From Streptococcaceae bacterium (GTDB lineage Bacteria > Bacillota > Bacilli > Lactobacillales > Streptococcaceae): a DNA stretch of 64,000 bases. The translations under genes were made by a program, and so were the position numbers. The DNA lies in assembly GCA_031253335.1 (NCBI GenBank), contig JAIRWF010000010.1, positions 1-64,000 of the forward strand, given 5' to 3'. Positions 34,125 to 44,108 of the stretch are shown piece after piece. Every line of letters begins with the position of its first letter. The first letter of the stretch is position 1. The notes under the pieces were generated by a model. The model had not been told where the DNA came from. It worked only from the letters and a program-made list of their open reading frames with translations, and ran no database searches.

Positions 34125-34868
34125 ATGACAATCACAAAAAAGCAATTCCTTCAGATTGCCCAGGAAAGTAATATTTTAGAACAAGAATACGCTTTGGATG
34201 TGCTTGTCCGGATTGCCCACCATTCAAGTGCGATAGAAGGCAACACCCTATCGCTGAGTGACACGATTACCATCATAGTTGATGAACTTACACCAACCAG
34301 ATCGAAATCAATGCGAGAGCTTTACGAGGTAGCTAACCACCGAGAAGCCCTAGCGGATGTTCTGAAAAAAATAAAAGAAGCAACGCCACCTGACACAGCC
34401 TTCATCAAATTAATTCATAAGGATTTAATGGATCACATTCGTGAAGATGCAGGCTCTTTCAAAACACAGCAAAATGCAATTCTTGGCTCTATGGAAAAAC
34501 TAGCAACACCTGGCGAGACACCTGCACTTATCATCCAATGGCTGGATAACTTAAACTATCAACTTGAAAACTTAACGGCAGAAAATTTTCTAATGGCTCT
34601 CGCTGAGCGTCATATAGAGTTTGAGTCTATTCATCCCTTTTCGGATGGAAATGGTAGAACAGGCCGCATGCTACTCATGTATGCGACGCTAAAAAAGCTA
34701 AATACTCCTCTCGTGATAACCATTGATGAACGCGCAGAATACATCGAAGCCATCCAACAGCACAGTGCAGAAACCCTTGCAAATCTTTTCACTCGCTGTC
34801 TTGAGCGCGAGCAATCACGTAAAGCATCCTTTGACTACCAAGAAGCAATGAACTCAGAAATTGAATAA
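34125..34868 (+). CDS. Fic-domain protein (class II, AMPylase type)
   Basis: 247-residue protein likely to transfer AMP or another nucleotide moiety to a target protein hydroxyl. The catalytic motif HPFSDGNGRTGR begins at His170 and is complete. An N-terminal inhibitory helix motif SSAIEGN (Ser34-Asn40, Glu38 as the blocking Glu) marks it as a self-inhibited class II Fic. The RBS is AGAAAGGAG. It is first gene after the cre-like promoter and is followed 27 nt later by the giant adhesin, so it heads the pilus region. No cognate small antitoxin is present, as expected for class II. Target unknown. Confidence 0.92.
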   Translation: MTITKKQFLQIAQESNILEQEYALDVLVRIAHHSSAIEGNTLSLSDTITIIVDELTPTRSKSMRELYEVANHREALADVLKKIKEATPPDTAFIKLIHKDLMDHIREDAGSFKTQQNAILGSMEKLATPGETPALIIQWLDNLNYQLENLTAENFLMALAERHIEFESIHPFSDGNGRTGRMLLMYATLKKLNTPLVITIDERAEYIEAIQQHSAETLANLFTRCLEREQSRKASFDYQEAMNSEIE

Positions 34869-34895: not shown

Positions 34896-37800
34896 ATGTC
34901 ACACACTTCTCAACATCGCAAGCGTAAAATCGTGCCTGTGAAGACATTTCTTTCGCATGCCGAGGAGAAGCCTACGCCAAAGCCCACCCACTTCCGCACT
35001 TGGAAATCAGGCAAGACCTGGCTCTATGGGGTTGCCCTTTTGACAGTCCTCGCAGGCACTGGGACGCTGGCTTATGAAGCAAGCCTTGCTCCATCCCCTG
35101 TCAAATCCATCTATGCCGCGACCATAGCGAGTAGCGGTCTCACGGCCGCAGGTGTCAGCGTCGATGCGGGAACACACGCGATGACCTCTGGCTATACTGC
35201 AGCAGGGAGCCTTGCCGCAGGTGTCACAAGTAGTGCAGCTTGGACGAGTTCCTATAGCGGAACAAACGAAGTCAGCATGAGCGGAAACTATTTCCAGTTG
35301 GCTGCTTCATCAGCCGTCTCAACAGCGGGCTATGTCGTGAATAATGAGGTCATTAACACCACTTCAGCTTTCACGATTTCGACGACTTTCCAAACAGGTT
35401 CTACAGGCTATATCGGAACACCAGGGGCAGGAATTGGACTTTTACTTGTCCCAGTAGGAGAAAAAATAGGAACTGGGACCGACCTCAATGCAGCTCCAAC
35501 GGGCTATGGAATCTCTGGCCTTGCCAATGCCATCTTTGCGGGTCGCATGCAATATCCAGCGAATGCAGGCGTGACCTTCGCCGATGCATCTACTGCCTAT
35601 ATCCGCATGACAAATACCGCTGGATCTCTCCTTTCCGTTCAGGGAGGGAATGCGAACACGTGGAGCTCTGCAGATTCTACAGGCTCTTACGCTACGGGTA
35701 CACCATGGATTACCAGCGTACCTTATTCAGCTTCTACAGGCTCTATTTATTCTGATAGTGTCACACTTTCTTGGTCTCCAACAAGTGGCACGACAGGAAC
35801 CTTGACTGAAACGATTAACGGTAAAACCCTGACCTATACCGGAGTGACGCTTCAATCCAACATGCAGTTTGGCATAGAGGCAGCGCACGGGACGACACAA
35901 TACACGCAATACGCCGCTACCGTCACCGCCATCTCCGCGACCGCTGCCACTTCTCCTATTACCGTCAATTACATCAATACGACGACAGGAAGCGAAATCA
36001 TAGGCACGACGCCTGACACCATCAAGACAGACATTGGCGCCTTGGTCGGCGTGACGAAGACAACGACAGGAAACACCTCAGATGCTTACGATTTTGTGGC
36101 GCCTACGATTTCGGGCTACACAGTCTCAAGCGTCTCCGCACCTGTCCAGCCAAATGGCACTACCTCATCGAGCATCAACGTCTATTACGCAGTCAATCAA
36201 TCTGCGACCTTTACCTACTCCTATGCGTCAAATACACCAGGTTCTGGGACAAACTCCGGCTCAAGCCTAGCCGCACTTCCAGCTACCAGTACGATTTCGG
36301 GCTATGCAGGTGCATCCTTGACAGCGACGCAAACCAATAAGTCAGGCTATGCGACCTTGGTGAGCTGGAACGGCACGTCTTATTCGAACCTAAGCTCTGC
36401 ACTTGCGGCTTATTACGCGGCAGCTGGCGCGTCAACAGGAACATTTGGCTCAAGCGCCGCTTATCTCAATCCGAGCTTTGCGCTTGTTTATTCTGCCTAC
36501 AATCAGCGCGCAGACTTTGGTGTTCTCTCTGGGACGACCCTCACGACGTCAAGCTCAACCTCGTCACCTACTGGTGCTCCGATGAGTGTGGGGAGCTATA
36601 CCGATGCTTCTCTTGCAAAGACAGGCTCATCCTATGTGGTCTATACAGGACTCATCTCGCAGGGCGCTTCCATTCCGACGACAACGACAGGCTTGTCTTC
36701 TCTATCTTCCTATGCGACGATATCACAAGCGCTAGCAGCTAATTCCTATTATACAGGCACAGCGTCAGGCAATGCCAATACGTCTGCAGCTGGCGAAACA
36801 GACCAAGTCTTCCTCATCTCCTATGCCGCTTTACAGTACATCAAATACTCCGCTTCCATGCAATCAGGCGCCCCAGGCTCTAGTAACATCACAGGGTCCC
36901 TTCAAATGACCCTCCCGACAGGAAGTCTCTTTGACTCAGGCATTGCATCAGGAAGCCTTTACAATTCAAACCTTGTCGCCTCTCTCGTGACTGCCTTTCC
37001 AGCAGCGACAACTTCAGGCTATGATTATTATATCCAAGCGACAAACGCGAGCGGGGTCACTGAAAATTTCCCAATTGCCTATGGCAATGGCGATTGGAAC
37101 ACTGCACTAGGTTTAAGCTCATATAGCACACAAAGTAGTGCGATGGCAGCAGCCTATAGCTCGGCAGCGGCCTTTATGGGAAGCTATGATTCTTCCGCGG
37201 ATAGCAACGGTAGCTCGCCGACGCAGTCCATGACCATTGTCTATGTCCCACGTGGGATGACGGTTACCTCTGTAGCCTCCTCGTCAGGCACCACATCTGT
37301 ATCACTTGCGGCACCAAGGATGTATGCTTTCCTCTACACCGGAGCAGATTTCTCCACAGCGACCGATCCGAAAGGAAATTCTGCCTACATCTCGACGACG
37401 GGCGCTCCTGGCACGACTGGGACATCCGCTTATGCGACCGTCATTGGCTCAACAGTAGCAAGCTATGCCAACTGGCCAACAGACTCCCAGCTCTCTGCAG
37501 CTGATCCAGGCTGGTCTTATCAGGTGGTTTGGGTAAGTGCTGCCACTGCGACAAGTGGGACAAGTTACCGTACCGCTGCCTTTTCATCCAATGCAGCAGC
37601 AGGTGTTCTAACCTATACGACGATGGCTTCAGCCTTGGCAGCGCATCCCTACACGACCTCAGCAGCCGCAGATTATTATGCCATTGACTACATTGCTCTC
37701 CCGACGGGTAGCGGTGCACAGACCTCGGCTGCCGCTGGGACGACTGCCAGCTTGACCAACGCTCTGACCCCGCAGTCTATGACGAATGCCCCAACCTTTA

Positions 37801-38429
37801 CGAGCTCAGGGTCTGCGACCAACACCGCACCATCCAGCTTCTTTGATAACAAAGGCTCAGAGTGGATGCAAAGTAGTAACGGCTCCTATTACCTCTTCTC
37901 GGGCGGAACACTCACAACGAGTGCCTTTAGTTACGTAAACACTCAAGGCACCACAATGTCAAGCCCACCAACAGGTGATATTGCGGGCTCATCTGGCGTA
38001 TCCATCACTTATACGGGCACAGGCGCCGCGCCAATCGTCGCCATTTCGGGTCTTAGTCCAGGTGATCACTTCGTCTATGTGACCTACACCGATACGAGTG
38101 GCAATAAAGTGACGGTGCTCGATGAAGTCTATGTGAACCCTGATTACGTCCTACCATTTACAGGTGGGGAAGGACTGGGGACGCTTCTAGGCCTCGCCAC
38201 CATGGCAGGGATAGGCGCACTAGGCTTCAGGCGACTCAGACGTAAAGAAGAAGAGGAAGTCTTTGACCCAGGTGGCTTAGATCCAGGCGAAGGTCCTGCT
38301 GGCGTGATACTGACCACAAGCTCAGGCTTGCACCGCGAGATTAGGCATATCAACCTCGTCTCACATAAAGCCAAGCCCCGAGGCGGCCTCCACGTCAACC
38401 GACGAAAAGCCCCACCTGGCTATGTCTAA
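34896..38429 (+). CDS. Giant LPXTG adhesin with lectin-like and MucBP-like domains (putative pilus tip)
   Basis: 1177-residue surface protein. The KxYKxGKxW-type signal HFRTWKSGKTWLYG sits at 32-45 after an extra 30-residue N-terminus. It continues with an L-type-lectin-like region (about 85-345), a MucBP-like domain (ITVNYINTTTGSEIIGTTPD on), and Ala/Ser/Thr-rich repeats of about 100 residues. The sorting signal LPFTGGEG starts near 1086, then a helix and RRLRRK. Unusually, about 60 residues follow the charged cluster (FDPGGLDPGEGP...RRKAPPGYV). No Shine-Dalgarno is seen; a small hairpin AATTAG/CTAATT precedes the ATG, so translation may depend on fic. Composition is far richer in A, S and T than in its neighbours. 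Confidence 0.88.
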   Translation: MSHTSQHRKRKIVPVKTFLSHAEEKPTPKPTHFRTWKSGKTWLYGVALLTVLAGTGTLAYEASLAPSPVKSIYAATIASSGLTAAGVSVDAGTHAMTSGYTAAGSLAAGVTSSAAWTSSYSGTNEVSMSGNYFQLAASSAVSTAGYVVNNEVINTTSAFTISTTFQTGSTGYIGTPGAGIGLLLVPVGEKIGTGTDLNAAPTGYGISGLANAIFAGRMQYPANAGVTFADASTAYIRMTNTAGSLLSVQGGNANTWSSADSTGSYATGTPWITSVPYSASTGSIYSDSVTLSWSPTSGTTGTLTETINGKTLTYTGVTLQSNMQFGIEAAHGTTQYTQYAATVTAISATAATSPITVNYINTTTGSEIIGTTPDTIKTDIGALVGVTKTTTGNTSDAYDFVAPTISGYTVSSVSAPVQPNGTTSSSINVYYAVNQSATFTYSYASNTPGSGTNSGSSLAALPATSTISGYAGASLTATQTNKSGYATLVSWNGTSYSNLSSALAAYYAAAGASTGTFGSSAAYLNPSFALVYSAYNQRADFGVLSGTTLTTSSSTSSPTGAPMSVGSYTDASLAKTGSSYVVYTGLISQGASIPTTTTGLSSLSSYATISQALAANSYYTGTASGNANTSAAGETDQVFLISYAALQYIKYSASMQSGAPGSSNITGSLQMTLPTGSLFDSGIASGSLYNSNLVASLVTAFPAATTSGYDYYIQATNASGVTENFPIAYGNGDWNTALGLSSYSTQSSAMAAAYSSAAAFMGSYDSSADSNGSSPTQSMTIVYVPRGMTVTSVASSSGTTSVSLAAPRMYAFLYTGADFSTATDPKGNSAYISTTGAPGTTGTSAYATVIGSTVASYANWPTDSQLSAADPGWSYQVVWVSAATATSGTSYRTAAFSSNAAAGVLTYTTMASALAAHPYTTSAAADYYAIDYIALPTGSGAQTSAAAGTTASLTNALTPQSMTNAPTFTSSGSATNTAPSSFFDNKGSEWMQSSNGSYYLFSGGTLTTSAFSYVNTQGTTMSSPPTGDIAGSSGVSITYTGTGAAPIVAISGLSPGDHFVYVTYTDTSGNKVTVLDEVYVNPDYVLPFTGGEGLGTLLGLATMAGIGALGFRRLRRKEEEEVFDPGGLDPGEGPAGVILTTSSGLHREIRHINLVSHKAKPRGGLHVNRRKAPPGYV

Positions 38430-38490
38430 CGAATGAAGATAATAAATGAAGATAATAATAGAAAAAGAAAATAGCAAAGGAAAACACACA

Positions 38491-40368
38491 ATGCAACTCA
38501 ATCTCAAAAAAATCAACAAGAAATTCGCCCTACTCGGGACGGGCCTCATCTTAGCCAGCACCCTCGCAGGCGCTGCAGGCGGCCTTTCAAACACCAATGC
38601 CGCAACCTACAACTCCGCCAACACCATCTCAAATGGTGAAGTGAAGATTTATGCGGAATCCGCAGCAGGAAACACCTCTACCTCTCAAAATAATGGTGGG
38701 ACAGCAGGTGCGACGGGTAGTGGGACAGACTCATCAGGAAACGACACAGGGATTGCAAACAACCAAACCCCAGCCCAACAGGGTAACGCATCTAGCACCG
38801 TCAATGACGGCTCTGCACAAACAGTCACCAGTCCCAATGGCACCATGGCCAATGTGACCTTTACCGCAACGCAATGGAATGGTACAGGTGCACCAACCGT
38901 GGATGCGAATGGTAATCCTACCTCTACCACAACGGGCTGGGGGGGCACACAAACCTCTGTCACTACTGACTCTACTGGACTTGCTGACTTCAAAAATCTC
39001 CCAACGGGCTACTATCTCTTCCAACAGACCACAACGGTCAACGGAATCGTCACAGTAAAACCTTTCATCGTCCAAGTCTCTAACGGAAACAGTAATTATT
39101 CTGCCGTCAACGTCTATCCAAAACTCGATATGTCCTTCTCATCAGGTATCGGTGATGTCGTCTCTGTGAAACCAGCCGATCAAGGCGACAACGCGACAGG
39201 AAAAACGCCAAACGAAGTGGATAATGCTTCGGGCACTACAAAAGGTTCACTTCAAGATACAACCATCCTGACCGGCACCACACCAAACAATACCGCGAAT
39301 AATGGCAATACGGTAAGTAACTCTCTGACATCTACAACAGATGACTCGACCTCTTGGACAGCAACCTCTGGGAATAATGAAAACACAAACACTGCAGCCG
39401 CAGGCGACACCGCCGCATGGAACGTGAATACCGTCTTTGACGCCTCACAAGTCTCTGGCACAAACGATGGATCTTACGTCGTCACAGATGTTCTTCCAGA
39501 TGGCGTCACCTATAGTTCAACGAAGGTTACCGCCGTTACGCCAAACGGGAATGTACCATTAACTTCTGGAAACGACTATACAGTGAGTCAAAGTGGACAG
39601 ACCGTCACGATAACATTGACCGATACCGGAAAGCAAAAAATTGCTGCGACAGCAGGAAATGCAGATTCACAATTAAACACACAAATTTTGACGCTCGTGA
39701 GCGACGGAACAGTGGGTAGCCTCAAAGATAGTGCTTCTTACAAAGCAACCAACGCCTATGGTGTTGTCCTCTCAGATGGCACTAAGACTGTTAGCTCTAC
39801 CCTAAACGTTGGTGGACTCGATCTCACAAAGACTGACGCACTCACAGGTCAAGCCCTTTCAGGTGCGAAATTTACCTTGGTGGCTGCGAAATCAGCTTCT
39901 GACATTACCATTACAAAGAGCGCTGATGGTAAGACAGTGACAGGGATTACGGTTGCAAATGGCGGCTATCTTGTGCCTGGTGGCACAGACGGAACGGTAG
40001 ATACAACGAATGGCGACACTACGGATTTAAGTAGTGCTGCAAGCGTCACGACTGATACTAGTGGTACGGCTAAATTTACTGGTCTCAATCTCGTGGATAA
40101 TAATACAGATGATTCAAATACAACGACTTATTTCCTTGTCGAGACCCAAGCACCTTCAGGCTATACGCTTCCAGACACTGCTTTCGGTGCGGAAAATGCC
40201 AACACATCACCTAAAGTAACAGATAATACAGTAACAAACGCGACCGTTTTCGAGCTCCCATTCACCGGTGGTCGTGGCATCGCCATGATCGTCATCGTCG
40301 CAGCAGGTGCCGGCTTCGCCGCCTTCGCAATCCGCCGTCGTAAAGGCAACGAAGAAGAAAAAGCATGA
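38491..40368 (+). CDS. LPXTG backbone pilin-like protein (SpaA type)
   Basis: 625-residue secreted protein expected to form the pilus shaft. Signal peptide 1-37, a pilin motif VNVYPKLD with the linking Lys near 211, a SpaA/CNA-B N-domain (TGLADFKNLPTGYYLFQ), a middle domain (DGSYVVTDVLPDGVTYSS), a last CNA-B domain (KTDALTGQALSGAKFTL) with E-box YFLVETQAPSGY, and sorting signal LPFTGGRG near 589. The start at 38491 has AAAGGAAAA upstream; a longer frame from 38446 includes a short tandem repeat (AATGAAGATAATA twice). It follows the adhesin gene closely and shares its sorting motif. Confidence 0.9.
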   Translation: MQLNLKKINKKFALLGTGLILASTLAGAAGGLSNTNAATYNSANTISNGEVKIYAESAAGNTSTSQNNGGTAGATGSGTDSSGNDTGIANNQTPAQQGNASSTVNDGSAQTVTSPNGTMANVTFTATQWNGTGAPTVDANGNPTSTTTGWGGTQTSVTTDSTGLADFKNLPTGYYLFQQTTTVNGIVTVKPFIVQVSNGNSNYSAVNVYPKLDMSFSSGIGDVVSVKPADQGDNATGKTPNEVDNASGTTKGSLQDTTILTGTTPNNTANNGNTVSNSLTSTTDDSTSWTATSGNNENTNTAAAGDTAAWNVNTVFDASQVSGTNDGSYVVTDVLPDGVTYSSTKVTAVTPNGNVPLTSGNDYTVSQSGQTVTITLTDTGKQKIAATAGNADSQLNTQILTLVSDGTVGSLKDSASYKATNAYGVVLSDGTKTVSSTLNVGGLDLTKTDALTGQALSGAKFTLVAAKSASDITITKSADGKTVTGITVANGGYLVPGGTDGTVDTTNGDTTDLSSAASVTTDTSGTAKFTGLNLVDNNTDDSNTTTYFLVETQAPSGYTLPDTAFGAENANTSPKVTDNTVTNATVFELPFTGGRGIAMIVIVAAGAGFAAFAIRRRKGNEEEKA

Positions 40369-40480
40369 TGTGAAGCCGACTGATCTGAAGTTGAGCAAAT
40401 TAGGAAATTGAGCGTTCTGAACGTAGTTCAGGTTCTCGATTTCTCTATTTGTCGAAACTTCAAGGAGGCTAATCTCAAAT

Positions 40481-40850
40481 AAGCTTAAGATGTGTAGCGA
40501 AGCGCTTTAACTTTCTTTCACAGTGAAACTTTCCGTGCATTTACTTTGTACTCAGTACAAAGCGGGAAGTTGAACAGTGACAAGAAAGTCAGCTGAGCGA
40601 AACTCAGTTAAGATGTGGAGCTCGCAGGTTTGAGAAGCTTTCGTAGTGCAGGCAGCTGTTCATTGACTTGGACGAAGTTCAAGCAGCTGGCTAAGCAGCG
40701 ACAAGCTTCTCATGCGAGCGAAACTCAGTTAAGATGTGTAGCTCGTAGGTTTGAGAAGCTTTCGTAGTGCAGACAGCTGTTCATTGACTTGGACGAAGTC
40801 CAAGCAGCTGGCTAAGCAGCGACAAGCTTCTCATGCGAGCAAAACTCAGT
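40481..40850 (+). repeat. Three bulged-hairpin repeat units in tandem
   Basis: Units separated by the linker ACTCAGTTAAGATGTG. Unit 1: outer arms AACTTTCCG/CGGGAAGTT (40527-40535, 40563-40571), bulge TGCATTTA, inner CTTTGTAC/GTACAAAG. Unit 2 (40620-40719): arms GCTCGCA/TGCGAGC and TGAGAAGCTT/AAGCTTCTCA, then CAGCTG/CAGCTG, bulge TTCATTGA, inner CTTGGAC/GTTCAAG. Unit 3 (40741-40840) is a 121-bp direct repeat of unit 2 with inner CTTGGAC/GTCCAAG. No reading frame is convincing here. Confidence 0.85.
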
Positions 40851-40900
40851 TAAGATGTGTAGCTCGAAGGGCTAAACCAACCCTGTAAAAAGAAAACCAG

Positions 40901-41000
40901 TTGACACCCGCGGAATTTATGGTATAATTTGTTTAGCGAATGTGAGTATATCGCTGGCGTATTATCGCAAAAACCGCAGGAGTGCATTCCTACGGTTTTT
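40901..41000 (+). ncRNA. Antisense RNA antitoxin (RNA II of an Fst/par-like type I module)
   Basis: Near-perfect promoter TTGACA (40901-40906), 16 nt, TATAAT (40923-40928), then about 65 nt ending in a bidirectional terminator (AAAAACCG.AGGA/TCCT.CGGTTTTT, 40969-41000). It carries AATGTGAGTATATC (40939-40952), identical to 41133-41146 in the toxin start region, and a second partial repeat (TGGCGTATTATCG versus TGGCATAATATCA). Being transcribed in opposite directions, the RNAs are complementary at these repeats, as in the Enterococcus par locus. Confidence 0.85.
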
Positions 41001-41044
41001 CTTTACACTAACTTGCGAAGCTAGTGTGCGGGCTCATGGCACTT

Positions 41045-41155
41045 TTAATCATCATCTTTGTCGTGAAACCAGCGACGGATCAGCTGATGTAAAACATCAA
41101 GCAAACCACCGACCAAAATCGGTATGATGATTAATGTGAGTATATCTATTGGCAT
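41045..41155 (-). CDS. Fst-family type I toxin peptide (36 aa)
   Basis: Small membrane-acting toxin. The peptide starts MPIDILTLIIIPILVGGL and ends RRWFHDKDDD: a short lead, one hydrophobic helix with the family P-I-x-V-G motif, a Trp near the end of the helix and a charged tail. A strong RBS (GAAAGGGGGTGAT) precedes the ATG. The 5' UTR can fold (TAGTAG/CTACTA and GGCA/TGCC), as in par RNA I, which delays translation. A -10 TATACT lies near 41204. It converges on the antisense RNA and shares its terminator. Expected to depolarise or disrupt the membrane if the unstable RNA antitoxin is lost. Confidence 0.88.
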   Translation of the reverse strand: MPIDILTLIIIPILVGGLLDVLHQLIRRWFHDKDDD

Positions 41156-41225
41156 AATATCACCCCCTTTCTAGTAGAAAGTTGGCAAGTGCCACTACTA
41201 AGTATAAAAAAAATTCTAAAACAGA

Positions 41226-41327
41226 TTGACACCCGCGGTTTTTATGGTATAACATGTCTAGCGAATATGAAGAGCTCGCTAAACATATGTATCGTAAAAG
41301 CCGCAGGTGGTGAGACCTACGGCTTTT
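41226..41327 (+). ncRNA. Second, apparently orphan, RNA II-like antitoxin
   Basis: TTGACACCCGCGG... promoter nearly identical to that of the first antitoxin RNA: TTGACA (41226-41231), 16 nt, TATAAC (41248-41253), and a similar terminator AAAAGCCG.AGG/CCT.CGGCTTTT (41295-41327). Its internal repeats do not match the toxin at 41045. No Fst-like peptide follows on the minus strand, so the toxin has been lost or the RNA acts in trans. Confidence 0.7.
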
Positions 41328-41427
41328 CTTTTCAGAAAATTGATTTTTCCGCTTTAAAAGGGATAAATAGGTGAAACGAAGTTAAGTTTCCGTTTGAGAA
41401 AAGATAAAGCAGAAATTAGAAGAAGCA

Positions 41428-41455
41428 TTGACAAGACTAATAAGGCTGCTATAAT
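41428..41455 (+). promoter_or_regulatory. Promoter of the pseudogene
   Basis: TTGACA (41428-41433), 16 nt, TATAAT (41450-41455), both consensus, followed by AGGAGGG and ATG at 41481. Confidence 0.85.
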
Positions 41456-41480
41456 AGAATTATAAAACAGGAGGGAAAAG

Positions 41481-41732
41481 ATGACTTGGGTAGAATACAT
41501 GACGAATGCAGCTCTTCAATCTAAATATGATGCTAGCTTCTGGTTTCGTTATTTGTGAAAAGTGATTACTGAAACTGAAATAAAACCAAGTCCGGAAAAG
41601 ATTGATGAGATACTATCATCCTCTGATTTGACTGCTTTCCAAAAAATTACGTTCAAGCAGACAGTTACTCAGGAATCAGTCACAAATCGTTATGTAATTT
41701 CTTTGAACAAGCCAGCAGAACTTCTTCTGTAG
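41481..41732 (+). pseudogene. Remnant of an 83-codon gene with an internal TGA
   Basis: An ideal promoter and RBS precede MTWVEYMTNAALQSKYDASF, but codon 26 is TGA (41556-41558). The same frame stays open to TAG at 41730 (VITETEIKPSPEKIDEILSS and on). Coding-like composition continues after the stop, so it is a recently broken gene, or less likely a readthrough product. I do not recognise the family. Confidence 0.7.
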
Positions 41733-41750
41733 GAAAATTATTGGTAAAAT

Positions 41751-41877
41751 ATGCAAAATAATAAAAAACTCTTTGAAGCTCTCAATCAAAAACTTGCTAA
41801 CAAAGATCTATGGCTTTGATTGGCTAGAAGAGTTCTATTTGAAAAACGATGAGAAATTGAAAAAATATTTTGGATGA
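41751..41877 (+). pseudogene. Remnant of a second small gene, frameshifted
   Basis: It starts MQNNKKLFEALNQKLANKDL; a stop after DLWL is bypassed in another frame that continues FDWLEEFYLKNDEKLKKYFG to a stop at 41877. Both halves look coding, suggesting one frameshift in a gene of about 40 codons. No family recognised. It lies just before the sortase gene. Confidence 0.55.
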
Positions 41878-41901
41878 AGTGAAGAATGAAAGGAGGCATG
41901 A

Positions 41902-43161
41902 ATGGCTCAACACAAAGAGAATCAACGTTCCGCAAAATCAAACCGCTCTTATCGCGTGCGGAATGTGATTTCTGTGTTGTTCCTCATCGTTGCCCTTTCA
42001 GCGCTCTTCTATCCCGTCGTTGCAAATTTCTACTACCAGCACAAAGCCCAAGAGACCGTTAATCATTTCCAATCTGAAGTCAAATCAACCAGCAAGTCTG
42101 AAATCAAGAAGCAGCTAGATAACGCGAAGCTCTACAACGCGAAGCTTTACAATCAGTACATCTATGACGCATCGCAGGGGATTCATCTCACGGGGAAAAT
42201 TCCTGATTATGACCAGACGCTCAATATCGACAACCATGGGATGATGGGCTATATCACGGTGCCGCAGATTGGCATCAAGGACATTCCCATTTATCACGGG
42301 GATTCCGAGACGACACTGGCTGAAGGCGCGGGGCATATCCAACAGACGAGTCTTCCAATTGGTGGCGTCAATACCCACACCGTGCTTGCCGCTCACTCAG
42401 GTCAAGTCAATGACACCTTGTTTAGCGACATTCAGTATTTGAAAAAAGGCGATGTCTTCTATATCACGACCTTGAATCTCAAACTCAAATATAAAGTCAT
42501 CAATAAAAAGGTGGTCTGGCCGACCGACATTTCGACGCTGAATATCGTGAAGGGGAAGGACTTAGCGACGCTTGTGACCTGCTACCCGACGGGAATTAAC
42601 GATCACCGTTTGCTCGTAACTGGCGAGCGTATTCCACTAAACGAGGTTACCAAGTCAGAACATGTCCAGCGAAATTTCTGGACTTACCGAAACCTCGTTG
42701 TCCTGGGCTCTGGACTTGTGGGGCTCCTGGCTCTCCTTTGGCTCTTATTGCTGGCTTTCCGAGGAAAACGCTGGTACCGCGCGGACTTGCAAAAGCTTGA
42801 AAAACCAGACTTGAGCTTGTCCCAAGCGGGCGAATTTGGTGAAGGCGTTTACTTCACGATGTCGAAGAAATTAGCTGAGCAAGAAGCACGTGATCTTGGC
42901 GATGATGCCGTCGTCAATGTCTATCACTTCCGCAAAGAGAAAAAAGACACGAAATATTTGATCTACTATAAGCGCACAGAGAACTGGCAAAAGTTTGTGG
43001 AGGCGATTGCTGGCGGGTATTACGAGGGTAAAGCCCATGATTTCGTGAAAGGTCCACATGCGAGGCCTGAAATCAAGGTACGCCAAAAAGACTTGCAGCT
43101 TGCGCTTCAGTCTGCAAACGCTTGTGAAAAGCTAAAATTTGTAAAAAGTTATAAAATATAG
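41902..43161 (+). CDS. Class C sortase with C-terminal cytoplasmic DUF3990-like domain
   Basis: Pilus-polymerising transpeptidase of 419 residues. N-terminal helix 21-43, extracellular catalytic domain with His165 (VLAAHSG), Cys227 (TLVTCYPTG) and Arg236 (DHRLLVTGER), and the class C stretch SLPIGGVNTHT. A second helix (264-285) returns the chain to the cytoplasm. Residues 291-419 are extra: KPDLSLSQAGEFGEGVYFT, VVNVYHF, NWQKFVEAI, HDFVKGPHA and a final LKFVKSYKI, the order of motifs I know from DUF3990, a family of the ADP-ribosyltransferase clan. The usual N-terminal YHGS is replaced by WYRAD, so NAD-dependent activity is doubtful. RBS AAAGGAGG. Confidence 0.85.
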   Translation: MAQHKENQRSAKSNRSYRVRNVISVLFLIVALSALFYPVVANFYYQHKAQETVNHFQSEVKSTSKSEIKKQLDNAKLYNAKLYNQYIYDASQGIHLTGKIPDYDQTLNIDNHGMMGYITVPQIGIKDIPIYHGDSETTLAEGAGHIQQTSLPIGGVNTHTVLAAHSGQVNDTLFSDIQYLKKGDVFYITTLNLKLKYKVINKKVVWPTDISTLNIVKGKDLATLVTCYPTGINDHRLLVTGERIPLNEVTKSEHVQRNFWTYRNLVVLGSGLVGLLALLWLLLLAFRGKRWYRADLQKLEKPDLSLSQAGEFGEGVYFTMSKKLAEQEARDLGDDAVVNVYHFRKEKKDTKYLIYYKRTENWQKFVEAIAGGYYEGKAHDFVKGPHARPEIKVRQKDLQLALQSANACEKLKFVKSYKI

Positions 43162-43401
43162 GGCGTGTCAAAAAACCGTTTTGCTTTTGAAGGCTAACGC
43201 CGAGAACCGTTTATACACTTGACGTCTTGCGTCAAGCGGTTCTAGAAGTTGCGATTCGCCTTGCGACTTTAGTCGCTTAGAGCGAATGGACACGCTTTAG
43301 CCAGATGAAAAAGCAGGGAGTTGCCATGCGACTTGCCAGCTTTGCTGGCTTAGCGAGCATGGACAGCGCAGCGCAAAGCGCGGAGATAGAGGTAACCTAA
43401 A
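43158..43401. repeat. MITE-like dispersed repeat, copy D
   Basis: It starts TAGGGCGTGTC and ends GAGGTAACCTAAA, between the sortase and minor pilin genes; its left end overlaps the sortase stop codon. The right half is nearly identical to copies A and B. It contains a complete bulged hairpin: outer AGAACCG/CGGTTCT (43203-43209, 43237-43243), bulge TTTATACA, inner CTTGACG/CGTCAAG. Confidence 0.85.
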
Positions 43402-43436
43402 GGGTAAGAATAAATCCTAAGAAAGGAGAAGAAATC

Positions 43437-44108
43437 GTGAAAAAACTCATCTGGCTTGTGATGCTTCTCCTGGCATTAGGAGGGTTTGCAAGTATTGCAA
43501 AAGCTGATTCGACAACGACTTACAACTTAACTATCCAAAAATATGGCTTAACACCTGGCGCGACAGGCTTCAAAAATCCACCCAAATGGACAGGACAGAC
43601 GATTAACAATCTCCCTGTTTATGATACAAATGGTAATGAAGTGCAAGCGCTTGCGGATATTAGCTATGTGATCACCAATACTGCAACAGGCGCAGTCGTA
43701 GCTACTATAACGACAGATAGCAAGGGGACGGCGACGATTTCGCTTCCGATGGGGACTTACAGTGTGCAAGAAGAGGCGAACCCTCTTCAAGGCTTGGTGA
43801 CACCTGCTGCGGCTGTGATAGTCTCTTTACCCTACTCAGATAGTGACAATGGTCTTTCGGAAGATGGGAGTGCCGTGATTTATCCGAAGTCAAGTCTTGA
43901 AAAACAGATACCGCCGAGCTCGAGTAAGCCAAGTACATCGACGCCTCCGAGCACGTCGAAACCTGCATTACCCAAAACCTCAAAACCTAAGGGTTTCTTG
44001 CCTCAGACGGGCGATGCGGTGACGGCATTGGCATCGGTCGGAGTGGTGCTTCTCATGATTGTGCTCTTTGCATGGAGCAGGCGACAAAACGAAGAAGAAA
44101 AATCGTAA
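43437..44108 (+). CDS. LPXTG minor (anchor-type) pilin
   Basis: 223-residue surface protein, probably the basal pilin attaching the pilus to the wall. Signal peptide 1-23 (LIWLVMLLLALGGFASIAKA), one CNA-B/SpaA domain starting YNLTIQKYGL and containing TDSKGTATISLPMGTYSVQEE, then SAVIYPKSS, a Pro/Ser/Lys wall-spanning stretch, and LPQTGD with helix and RRQNEEEKS. The start is GTG with GAAAGGAGAAG upstream. Its sorting motif (LPQTGD) differs from LPFTGG of the two larger proteins, which fits a different sortase for anchoring. Confidence 0.9.
   Translation: MKKLIWLVMLLLALGGFASIAKADSTTTYNLTIQKYGLTPGATGFKNPPKWTGQTINNLPVYDTNGNEVQALADISYVITNTATGAVVATITTDSKGTATISLPMGTYSVQEEANPLQGLVTPAAAVIVSLPYSDSDNGLSEDGSAVIYPKSSLEKQIPPSSSKPSTSTPPSTSKPALPKTSKPKGFLPQTGDAVTALASVGVVLLMIVLFAWSRRQNEEEKS

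What the first reader, a model, noticed from the sequence alone, without database searches (positions are those of the whole stretch)
41902..43161. Sortase C fused to a cytoplasmic DUF3990-like (ADP-ribosyltransferase-clan) domain
Sequence: a complete class C sortase (His165, Cys227, Arg236) is followed by a second membrane helix and 129 more residues on the cytoplasmic side. These carry, in order, KPDLSL, EFGEGVYFT, VVNVYHF, NWQKFVEAI, HDFVKGPHA and LKFVKSYKI. Knowledge: from memory this is the motif order of DUF3990 (DFGxGFYxT, YDIVxGPVA), in the ADP-ribosyltransferase clan. The YHGS motif is replaced by WYRAD, so the domain may bind a ligand rather than catalyse. Inference: a pilus sortase that senses, or is controlled by, a cytoplasmic signal through its tail. 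I know of no such fusion.
Basis: partly seen in the sequence, partly recalled or inferred. Interest (0 to 1): 0.85.

Follow-up and report, generated by a model that had tools for sequence, protein, structure and literature searches.

The report
Pilus sortase with pseudo-ADP-ribosyltransferase tail
The enzyme that links pilin subunits into pili in Lactococcus and a related genus carries, on the inner side of the membrane, a domain folded like an ADP-ribosyltransferase but with a broken active-site motif; the same protein appears to be in the laboratory species L. lactis, where the open-access papers searched never mention the extra domain.

Summary
Residues 287-419 of the class C sortase score above Pfam's cut-off for DUF3990. 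A confident AlphaFold2 model of them (pLDDT 93.6) matches ADP-ribosyltransferase (ART) folds: RES/ParT toxins, the diphtheria-toxin group, tankyrases, Tpt1.

The fusion is not unique. Seven of 18 Lactococcus species genomes carry it (one copy broken), always as the sortase of a four-gene pilus operon. One homologue matches the published length and active-site positions of L. lactis IL1403 SrtC, which builds pili; the papers searched do not mention the tail.

All eight fused copies lack the ART motif I, H-x-[ST], which 41 of 42 stand-alone DUF3990 rows keep. They retain the motif II Tyr and, where the copy is complete, the motif III Gln. Fused tails are strongly basic. In sister sortases the same position holds other domains: a dead second sortase, a SpaA-like domain (more distant clade), or an unidentified domain.

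My reading is a catalytically dead, basic cytosolic docking module that positions the sortase or recruits pilins. This fits reports that Enterococcus sortases need a basic C-terminal tail for localisation and piliation. Ligand sensing and residual activity are not excluded; no function has been tested.

The parts
41902..43161 (+). SrtC-DUF3990 fusion protein, 419 aa (stop included)
41965..42033 (+). first membrane helix, residues about 22-44
   Evidence: sequence; NCBIfam class C match starts at residue 25
42253..42630 (+). sortase catalytic domain, residues 118-243 (His165, Cys227, Arg236)
42688..42759 (+). second membrane helix, residues about 263-286
   Evidence: hydropathy 2.6
42760..43158 (+). 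cytosolic DUF3990 / pseudo-ART tail, residues 287-419
   Evidence: PF13151 39.3 bits; AF2 pLDDT 93.6; ART folds
42772..42786 (+). degenerate motif I, WYRAD (stand-alone DUF3990: YHG[ST])
42832..42858 (+). motif II EFGEGVYFT with conserved Tyr317
43096..43098 (+). motif III Gln399, conserved in complete fused copies and stand-alone DUF3990
34896..38429 (+). tip pilin / adhesin (pilA-like) with KxYKxGKxW signal and LPFTGG
38446..40368 (+). backbone pilin (pilB-like), SpaH/EbpB family, LPFTGG, acidic end RRRKGNEEEKA
43437..44108 (+). minor/anchor pilin (pilC-like), LPQTGD

Best explanation
This is the pilus-polymerising sortase C of a four-gene pilus operon. A stand-alone DUF3990 (ART-fold) domain became fused behind its second membrane helix and then lost its NAD-anchoring motif. 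Shown: profile membership, predicted ART fold, loss of H-x-[ST] in all eight fused copies, basic charge, conserved operon. Inferred: the domain sits in the cytosol and does not catalyse ADP-ribosylation, but works as a basic docking module that holds the sortase at the pilus assembly site and/or helps it take its own pilins through their short cytosolic C-termini, while polymerisation itself is done outside by the ordinary sortase active site.
For: Tail passes PF13151; tail profile against stand-alone DUF3990, hhalign probability 99.2%. Model pLDDT 93.6; best matches RES toxin 9r35 (Foldseek E 4e-4), ParT (Z 8.1), MbcT, diphtheria-toxin group, tankyrases, Tpt1. Motif I H-x-[ST] intact in 0/8 fused and 41/42 stand-alone rows after reading two rows the script misparsed. 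Fused tails net +8 to +15, pI 9.5-9.9 (a partial copy +4), stand-alone DUF3990 -10 to +6. Sister sortases carry unrelated tails in the same place: pseudo-sortase without the Cys, an unidentified type, and in another clade SpaA-like; these are basic too. Tail and sortase show similar low dN/dS, about 0.09, in one pair. Basic C-terminal domains of E. faecalis sortases are needed for their distribution and for pili (PMC4829219 citing Kline 2009). Backbone pilins of the DUF3990 operons end in acidic motifs (at least 3 D/E, 8/8), those of untailed sister operons do not (0/7). L. lactis SrtC with matching residue numbers polymerises pili (PMC3516528).
Against: No binding, localisation or truncation experiment exists in what I read. 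Basic charge is common next to bacterial membranes (positive-inside). The acidic pilin ends are a single clade contrast, and acidic ends are not rare in LPXTG proteins (from memory). The motif II Tyr and motif III Gln are kept, more than pure docking requires. Only two amino-acid differences underlie the tail dN/dS. Sister sortases without a tail exist in complete operons, so the tail is not essential to the mechanism in general.
Confidence: 0.5

Rival explanations
1. One reading: the degenerate ART pocket still binds a nucleotide-like ligand (NAD+, ADP-ribose or similar) and signals through the second helix to the sortase, so pilus building follows a cytosolic state.
For: The ART pocket is kept in the predicted fold; motif II Tyr in all fused copies and motif III Gln in the complete ones.
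Against: Motif I, which anchors the adenosine ribose in H-Y-[EDQ] ARTs (PMC7955679), is lost, its His position now holding R, Q or H, which does not look like one conserved ligand site. Sister sortases use unrelated domains in the same place.
Confidence: 0.17
2. The tail is still an active enzyme (ART or NAD glycohydrolase), perhaps with Arg293 in the role it has in RES-type or R-S-E ARTs, acting on pilin ends or other membrane-near targets.
For: Best structural matches are RES/ParT enzymes; the window and L. termiticola have Arg at motif I, three copies still have His.
Against: No copy keeps H-x-[ST]; Gln takes the place in three copies; an acidic residue in the helix after motif II is not conserved; no DUF3791 partner gene in the genome.
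Confidence: 0.1
3. The tail is a passenger: a former toxin/defence-type domain captured by recombination, harmless and drifting.
For: It evolves faster than the sortase core (30-54% against 62-88% identity in most pairs); untailed sister sortases live in complete operons.
Against: Kept open at full length in seven genomes, with the fold core (FGxGxY, NW, Gln) conserved; dN/dS about 0.09 in one pair; the broken copy lies in an operon with other broken genes.
Confidence: 0.18

Closest known systems
Lactococcus lactis IL1403 SrtC (YhhA) of the pil operon (Oxaran 2012, PMC3516528)
   Same: 432 residues, His163, TLVTC 221-225, Arg234, two membrane helices, operon of tip, backbone, sortase and anchor pilin; a homologue held here (L066) has these numbers exactly when read from its second Met, and carries the DUF3990 tail.
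   Different: The paper describes only the membrane helices and the sortase; the tail is not mentioned. The window protein has WYRAD where L066 has LYHVA.
Stand-alone DUF3990 proteins (PF13151) of bacteria and phages
   Same: Profile, fold, motif II FGxGxY, motif III Gln.
   Different: They keep YHG/YHA[ST], are mostly neutral or acidic, and have about 25 more residues before the Gln.
E. faecalis SrtC/SrtA with basic C-terminal cytoplasmic tails (Kline 2009, cited in PMC4829219)
   Same: A basic cytosolic C-terminal part of a pilus sortase, reported as needed for placement and piliation.
   Different: There the tail is described only as a positively charged C-terminal domain; here it is a folded 133-residue domain.

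Membership tests
Class C (pilin) sortase | Curated model match with catalytic His, TLxTC Cys and Arg | tested here: met
   NF033745 240.4 bits, cut-off 160; His165, Cys227, Arg236
Class C (pilin) sortase | Pilin operon context and C-terminal membrane helix | tested here: met
   pilA-pilB-srtC-pilC at 34896-44108; TM2
DUF3990 (PF13151) | Score above Pfam gathering cut-off | tested here: met
   34.3 / 39.3 bits, cut-off 32.2; also met by the seven other fused copies
DUF3990 (PF13151) | Full-length profile match (not required by Pfam's cut-off) | tested here: not met
   Pfam aligns positions 9-109 of 152 only; about 25 residues before the Gln are missing. Filed as a degenerate, shortened member on the curated score and the hhalign match over the whole tail
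ADP-ribosyltransferase fold | ART fold | tested here: met
   AF2 model pLDDT 93.6; Foldseek E 4e-4 to a RES toxin; VIA Z up to 8.1, nearly all listed rows ART enzymes
H-Y-[EDQ] ADP-ribosyltransferase (enzyme) | Motif I H-x-[ST] | tested here: not met
   WYRAD here; 0 of 8 fused copies
H-Y-[EDQ] ADP-ribosyltransferase (enzyme) | Motif II Tyr and motif III E/D/Q | tested here: met
   Tyr317 and Gln399
H-Y-[EDQ] ADP-ribosyltransferase (enzyme) | NAD+-dependent activity | not testable with these tools
   needs purified protein
DUF3990 + DUF3791 gene pair | DUF3791 partner gene | tested here: not met
   no PF12668 match in the 82%-complete own genome

The most novel reading that the evidence does not exclude
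Class C sortases of Lactococcus and relatives carry exchangeable cytosolic domains made from dead enzymes or pilin-like folds (pseudo-ART, pseudo-sortase, SpaA-like, an unidentified type) that read the cytosolic C-termini of their own pilins, so that two pilus systems in one cell do not mix subunits: substrate choice made from inside the membrane by a domain added to an enzyme that works outside.
Probability: 0.22. Interest if true: 0.78.

Novelty: new variant of a known kind. Interest (0 to 1): 0.58.

Why it matters
Sortases are treated as enzymes whose business is outside the membrane. A conserved, folded cytosolic domain on the pilus sortase of Lactococcus, apparently including a protein whose pili have been made and measured, gives a direct handle on how sortases are placed and choose substrates, and can be tested by a tail deletion in a food bacterium. 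It also adds a sortase-borne case of an ART fold that seems to have lost catalysis.

Tried and rejected
Sequence search of the tail, single or as a profile, against the PDB: nothing meaningful. Fused tail in 72,556 plasmids: none. Fusion-tail profile in 399 genomes of the class: no sortase fusion outside the window genome in that sample. Viral scan with the mixed alignment: none; with stand-alone DUF3990: 19 phage-type relatives, used only to deepen the alignment. Idea that the unidentified tail is an ASCH domain: hhalign gave nothing. Idea that the tail types are diverged forms of one domain: hhalign found no similarity of the unidentified or pseudo-sortase tail to DUF3990. Full-length AlphaFold2 model with six rows: poor (pLDDT 56.8), not used. 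Single origin of the DUF3990 fusion: not rejected, not shown (AU p 0.19). The 96/96 support for one clade of the three Lactococcus tail types fell to 61/87 when TM2, the tail start and distant rows were left out. Kline 2009 itself was not held.

Full report
What is there. Window 41902-43161 (+) encodes 419 residues. Residues 118-243 are a sortase (PF04203, 83.7 bits) and the whole is a class C sortase by NCBIfam (240 bits, cut-off 160). After a second membrane helix at about 262-286, residues 287-419 match DUF3990 (PF13151): 34.3 bits in the whole protein, 39.3 bits with E 6.7e-10 alone, cut-off 32.2. Since the sortase domain of class C enzymes works outside the membrane (established knowledge), the tail lies in the cytosol; this is inference from topology.

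Fold. AlphaFold2 on the tail with 16 relatives (five fused, eleven phage-type DUF3990) gave pLDDT 93.6 and pTM 0.86. Foldseek put the Pseudomonas putida RES toxin first (E 4.4e-4), then PARP4. VIA-align gave ParT Z 8.1 over 122 residues, and nearly all other listed rows are ART enzymes: diphtheria-toxin group, MbcT, tankyrases, cholix/exotoxin A catalytic domains, Tpt1, RES. A Z of 8 alone is middling; the uniform identity of the list, together with the profile match, makes the ART fold very likely. An open-access paper places DUF3990 in the Pfam ART clan (PMC7955679).

Distribution. Among 335 Streptococcaceae genomes the sortase fusion occurs in the window genome and seven Lactococcus-genus genomes; other DUF3990 proteins of the family are mostly stand-alone, 150-230 residues. 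The fused copies align end to end at 46-60% identity. Named ones are L. hircilactis, L. termiticola, L. taiwanensis, L. nasutitermitis and L. cremoris (the last broken by stops). A 395-genome draw from the order and a 399-genome draw from the class showed no sortase fusion elsewhere, nor did plasmids.

Operon. The fused gene lies in a pilus operon with a large LPXTG adhesin, a backbone pilin with LPFTGG and a small pilin. Oxaran et al. 2012 report IL1403 SrtC as 432 residues with His163, TLVTC 221-225 and Arg234, and show by deletion and a Cys-to-Ala variant that it polymerises the backbone pilin (PMC3516528). Homologue L066 (G064), read from its second Met, has exactly these numbers (433 residues from the first Met, TLVTC 222-226, His164, Arg235), and the control L. 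lactis genome rings for DUF3990. So the studied L. lactis sortase very probably has the tail; the passages of the paper that I read speak only of membrane helices. Four held papers mention DUF3990 at all, and a search for sortase with ADP-ribosyltransferase, fusion and pilus found nothing on point.

Active site. H-Y-[EDQ] ARTs use His in H-x-[ST], a Tyr and an E/D/Q (PMC7955679). Stand-alone DUF3990 rows held here keep H-x-[ST] in 39 of 42 by script; reading the two misparsed rows makes it 41 of 42 (one has HGN). The rows include near-copies. None of eight fused copies keeps it: YRAD, YRAT, YQVS (three), YHVA (three). Tyr of FGxGxY is kept in all eight and Gln of motif III in all complete copies. 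About 25 residues before the Gln are absent. Fused tails are basic (net +8 to +15, a partial copy +4) while stand-alone ones are not (-10 to +6).

Tail swapping. Related sortases carry other tails behind the same helix. In three Lactococcus-genus copies it is a second, degenerate sortase without the catalytic Cys (hhalign probability 98.4%, E 5e-15). In three it is an unidentified domain. In a more distant clade (several Streptococcaceae genomes and one of another family of the order) it is a SpaA-like domain, above the Pfam cut-off in three of six. Sister operons, including one in the window's own genome, have sortases without any such tail. In the sortase tree the three Lactococcus tail types group apart from the untailed ones with 96/96 support, but only 61/87 when the helix and tail start are left out; one origin of the DUF3990 fusion is not rejected (AU p 0.19).

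How it may work. I favour a dead, basic docking module: (i) motif I is lost in every copy and by different residues; (ii) unrelated domains do duty in the same place; (iii) all of these are basic; (iv) basic C-terminal parts of E. faecalis sortases are reported as needed for their distribution and for pili (PMC4829219). A further hint is that backbone pilins of the DUF3990 operons end in acidic motifs (8 of 8 with three or more D/E) and those of untailed sister operons do not (0 of 7), but this is one clade contrast and acidic ends are common enough in LPXTG proteins (from memory). Steps shown: fold, motif loss, charge, operon, conservation. Steps inferred: cytosolic side, lack of activity, docking, pilin choice.

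Limits. dN/dS rests on one close pair with two amino-acid changes in the tail. The own genome is 82% complete. The identity of G064 with L. lactis rests on residue numbers. No experiment addresses the tail.

Noticed in passing
window 40369-41901: A 1.5-kb gap separates pilB from srtC, unlike the short gaps in several Lactococcus pil operons. It holds 121-nt tandem repeats (about 40560-40870), and on the minus strand (about 41045-41170) a small hydrophobic peptide resembling type I (Fst-like) toxins from memory, with a sub-threshold RefB11 match and duplicated promoter-like repeats; Pfam does not recognise the peptide.
   Followed up: partly
window 34896-38429: The tip pilin has a stretch of about 60 residues after the LPFTGG/membrane helix, far longer than usual; the pilA genes of L066 and L068 also seem to have long ends of different sequence.
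   Followed up: no
L134, L135, L136 (srtC): Lactococcus-genus class C sortases with a second, degenerate sortase domain without the catalytic Cys on the cytosolic side (hhalign 98.4%).
   Followed up: partly
L073, L137, L138 (srtC): Sortase tails of about 140 residues with no Pfam family and no similarity to DUF3990, sortase or ASCH.
   Followed up: partly
L012, L014, L015, L017, L018, L024 (srtC): Class C sortases with a SpaA/CnaB-like, pilin-type domain behind the second helix, on the cytosolic side by topology; several of the backbone pilins beside them end in AEV.
   Followed up: partly
L007, L008, L095, L096, L097, L098: About 600-residue proteins with two sortase-like domains separated by membrane helices.
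   Followed up: no
window 34125-34868: A Fic protein directly upstream of pilA matches the PADLOC models PDC-S04 and SoFic.
   Followed up: no
window 42760-43158: The DUF3990 tail also matches PADLOC candidate defence models PDC-M10A and PDC-M13, which suggests the stand-alone family is a toxin/defence component.
   Followed up: no
window 42190-42260: The sortase lacks a DP[FWY] lid motif, which many class C sortases have (from memory); several SpaA-tailed ones have DPF.
   Followed up: no
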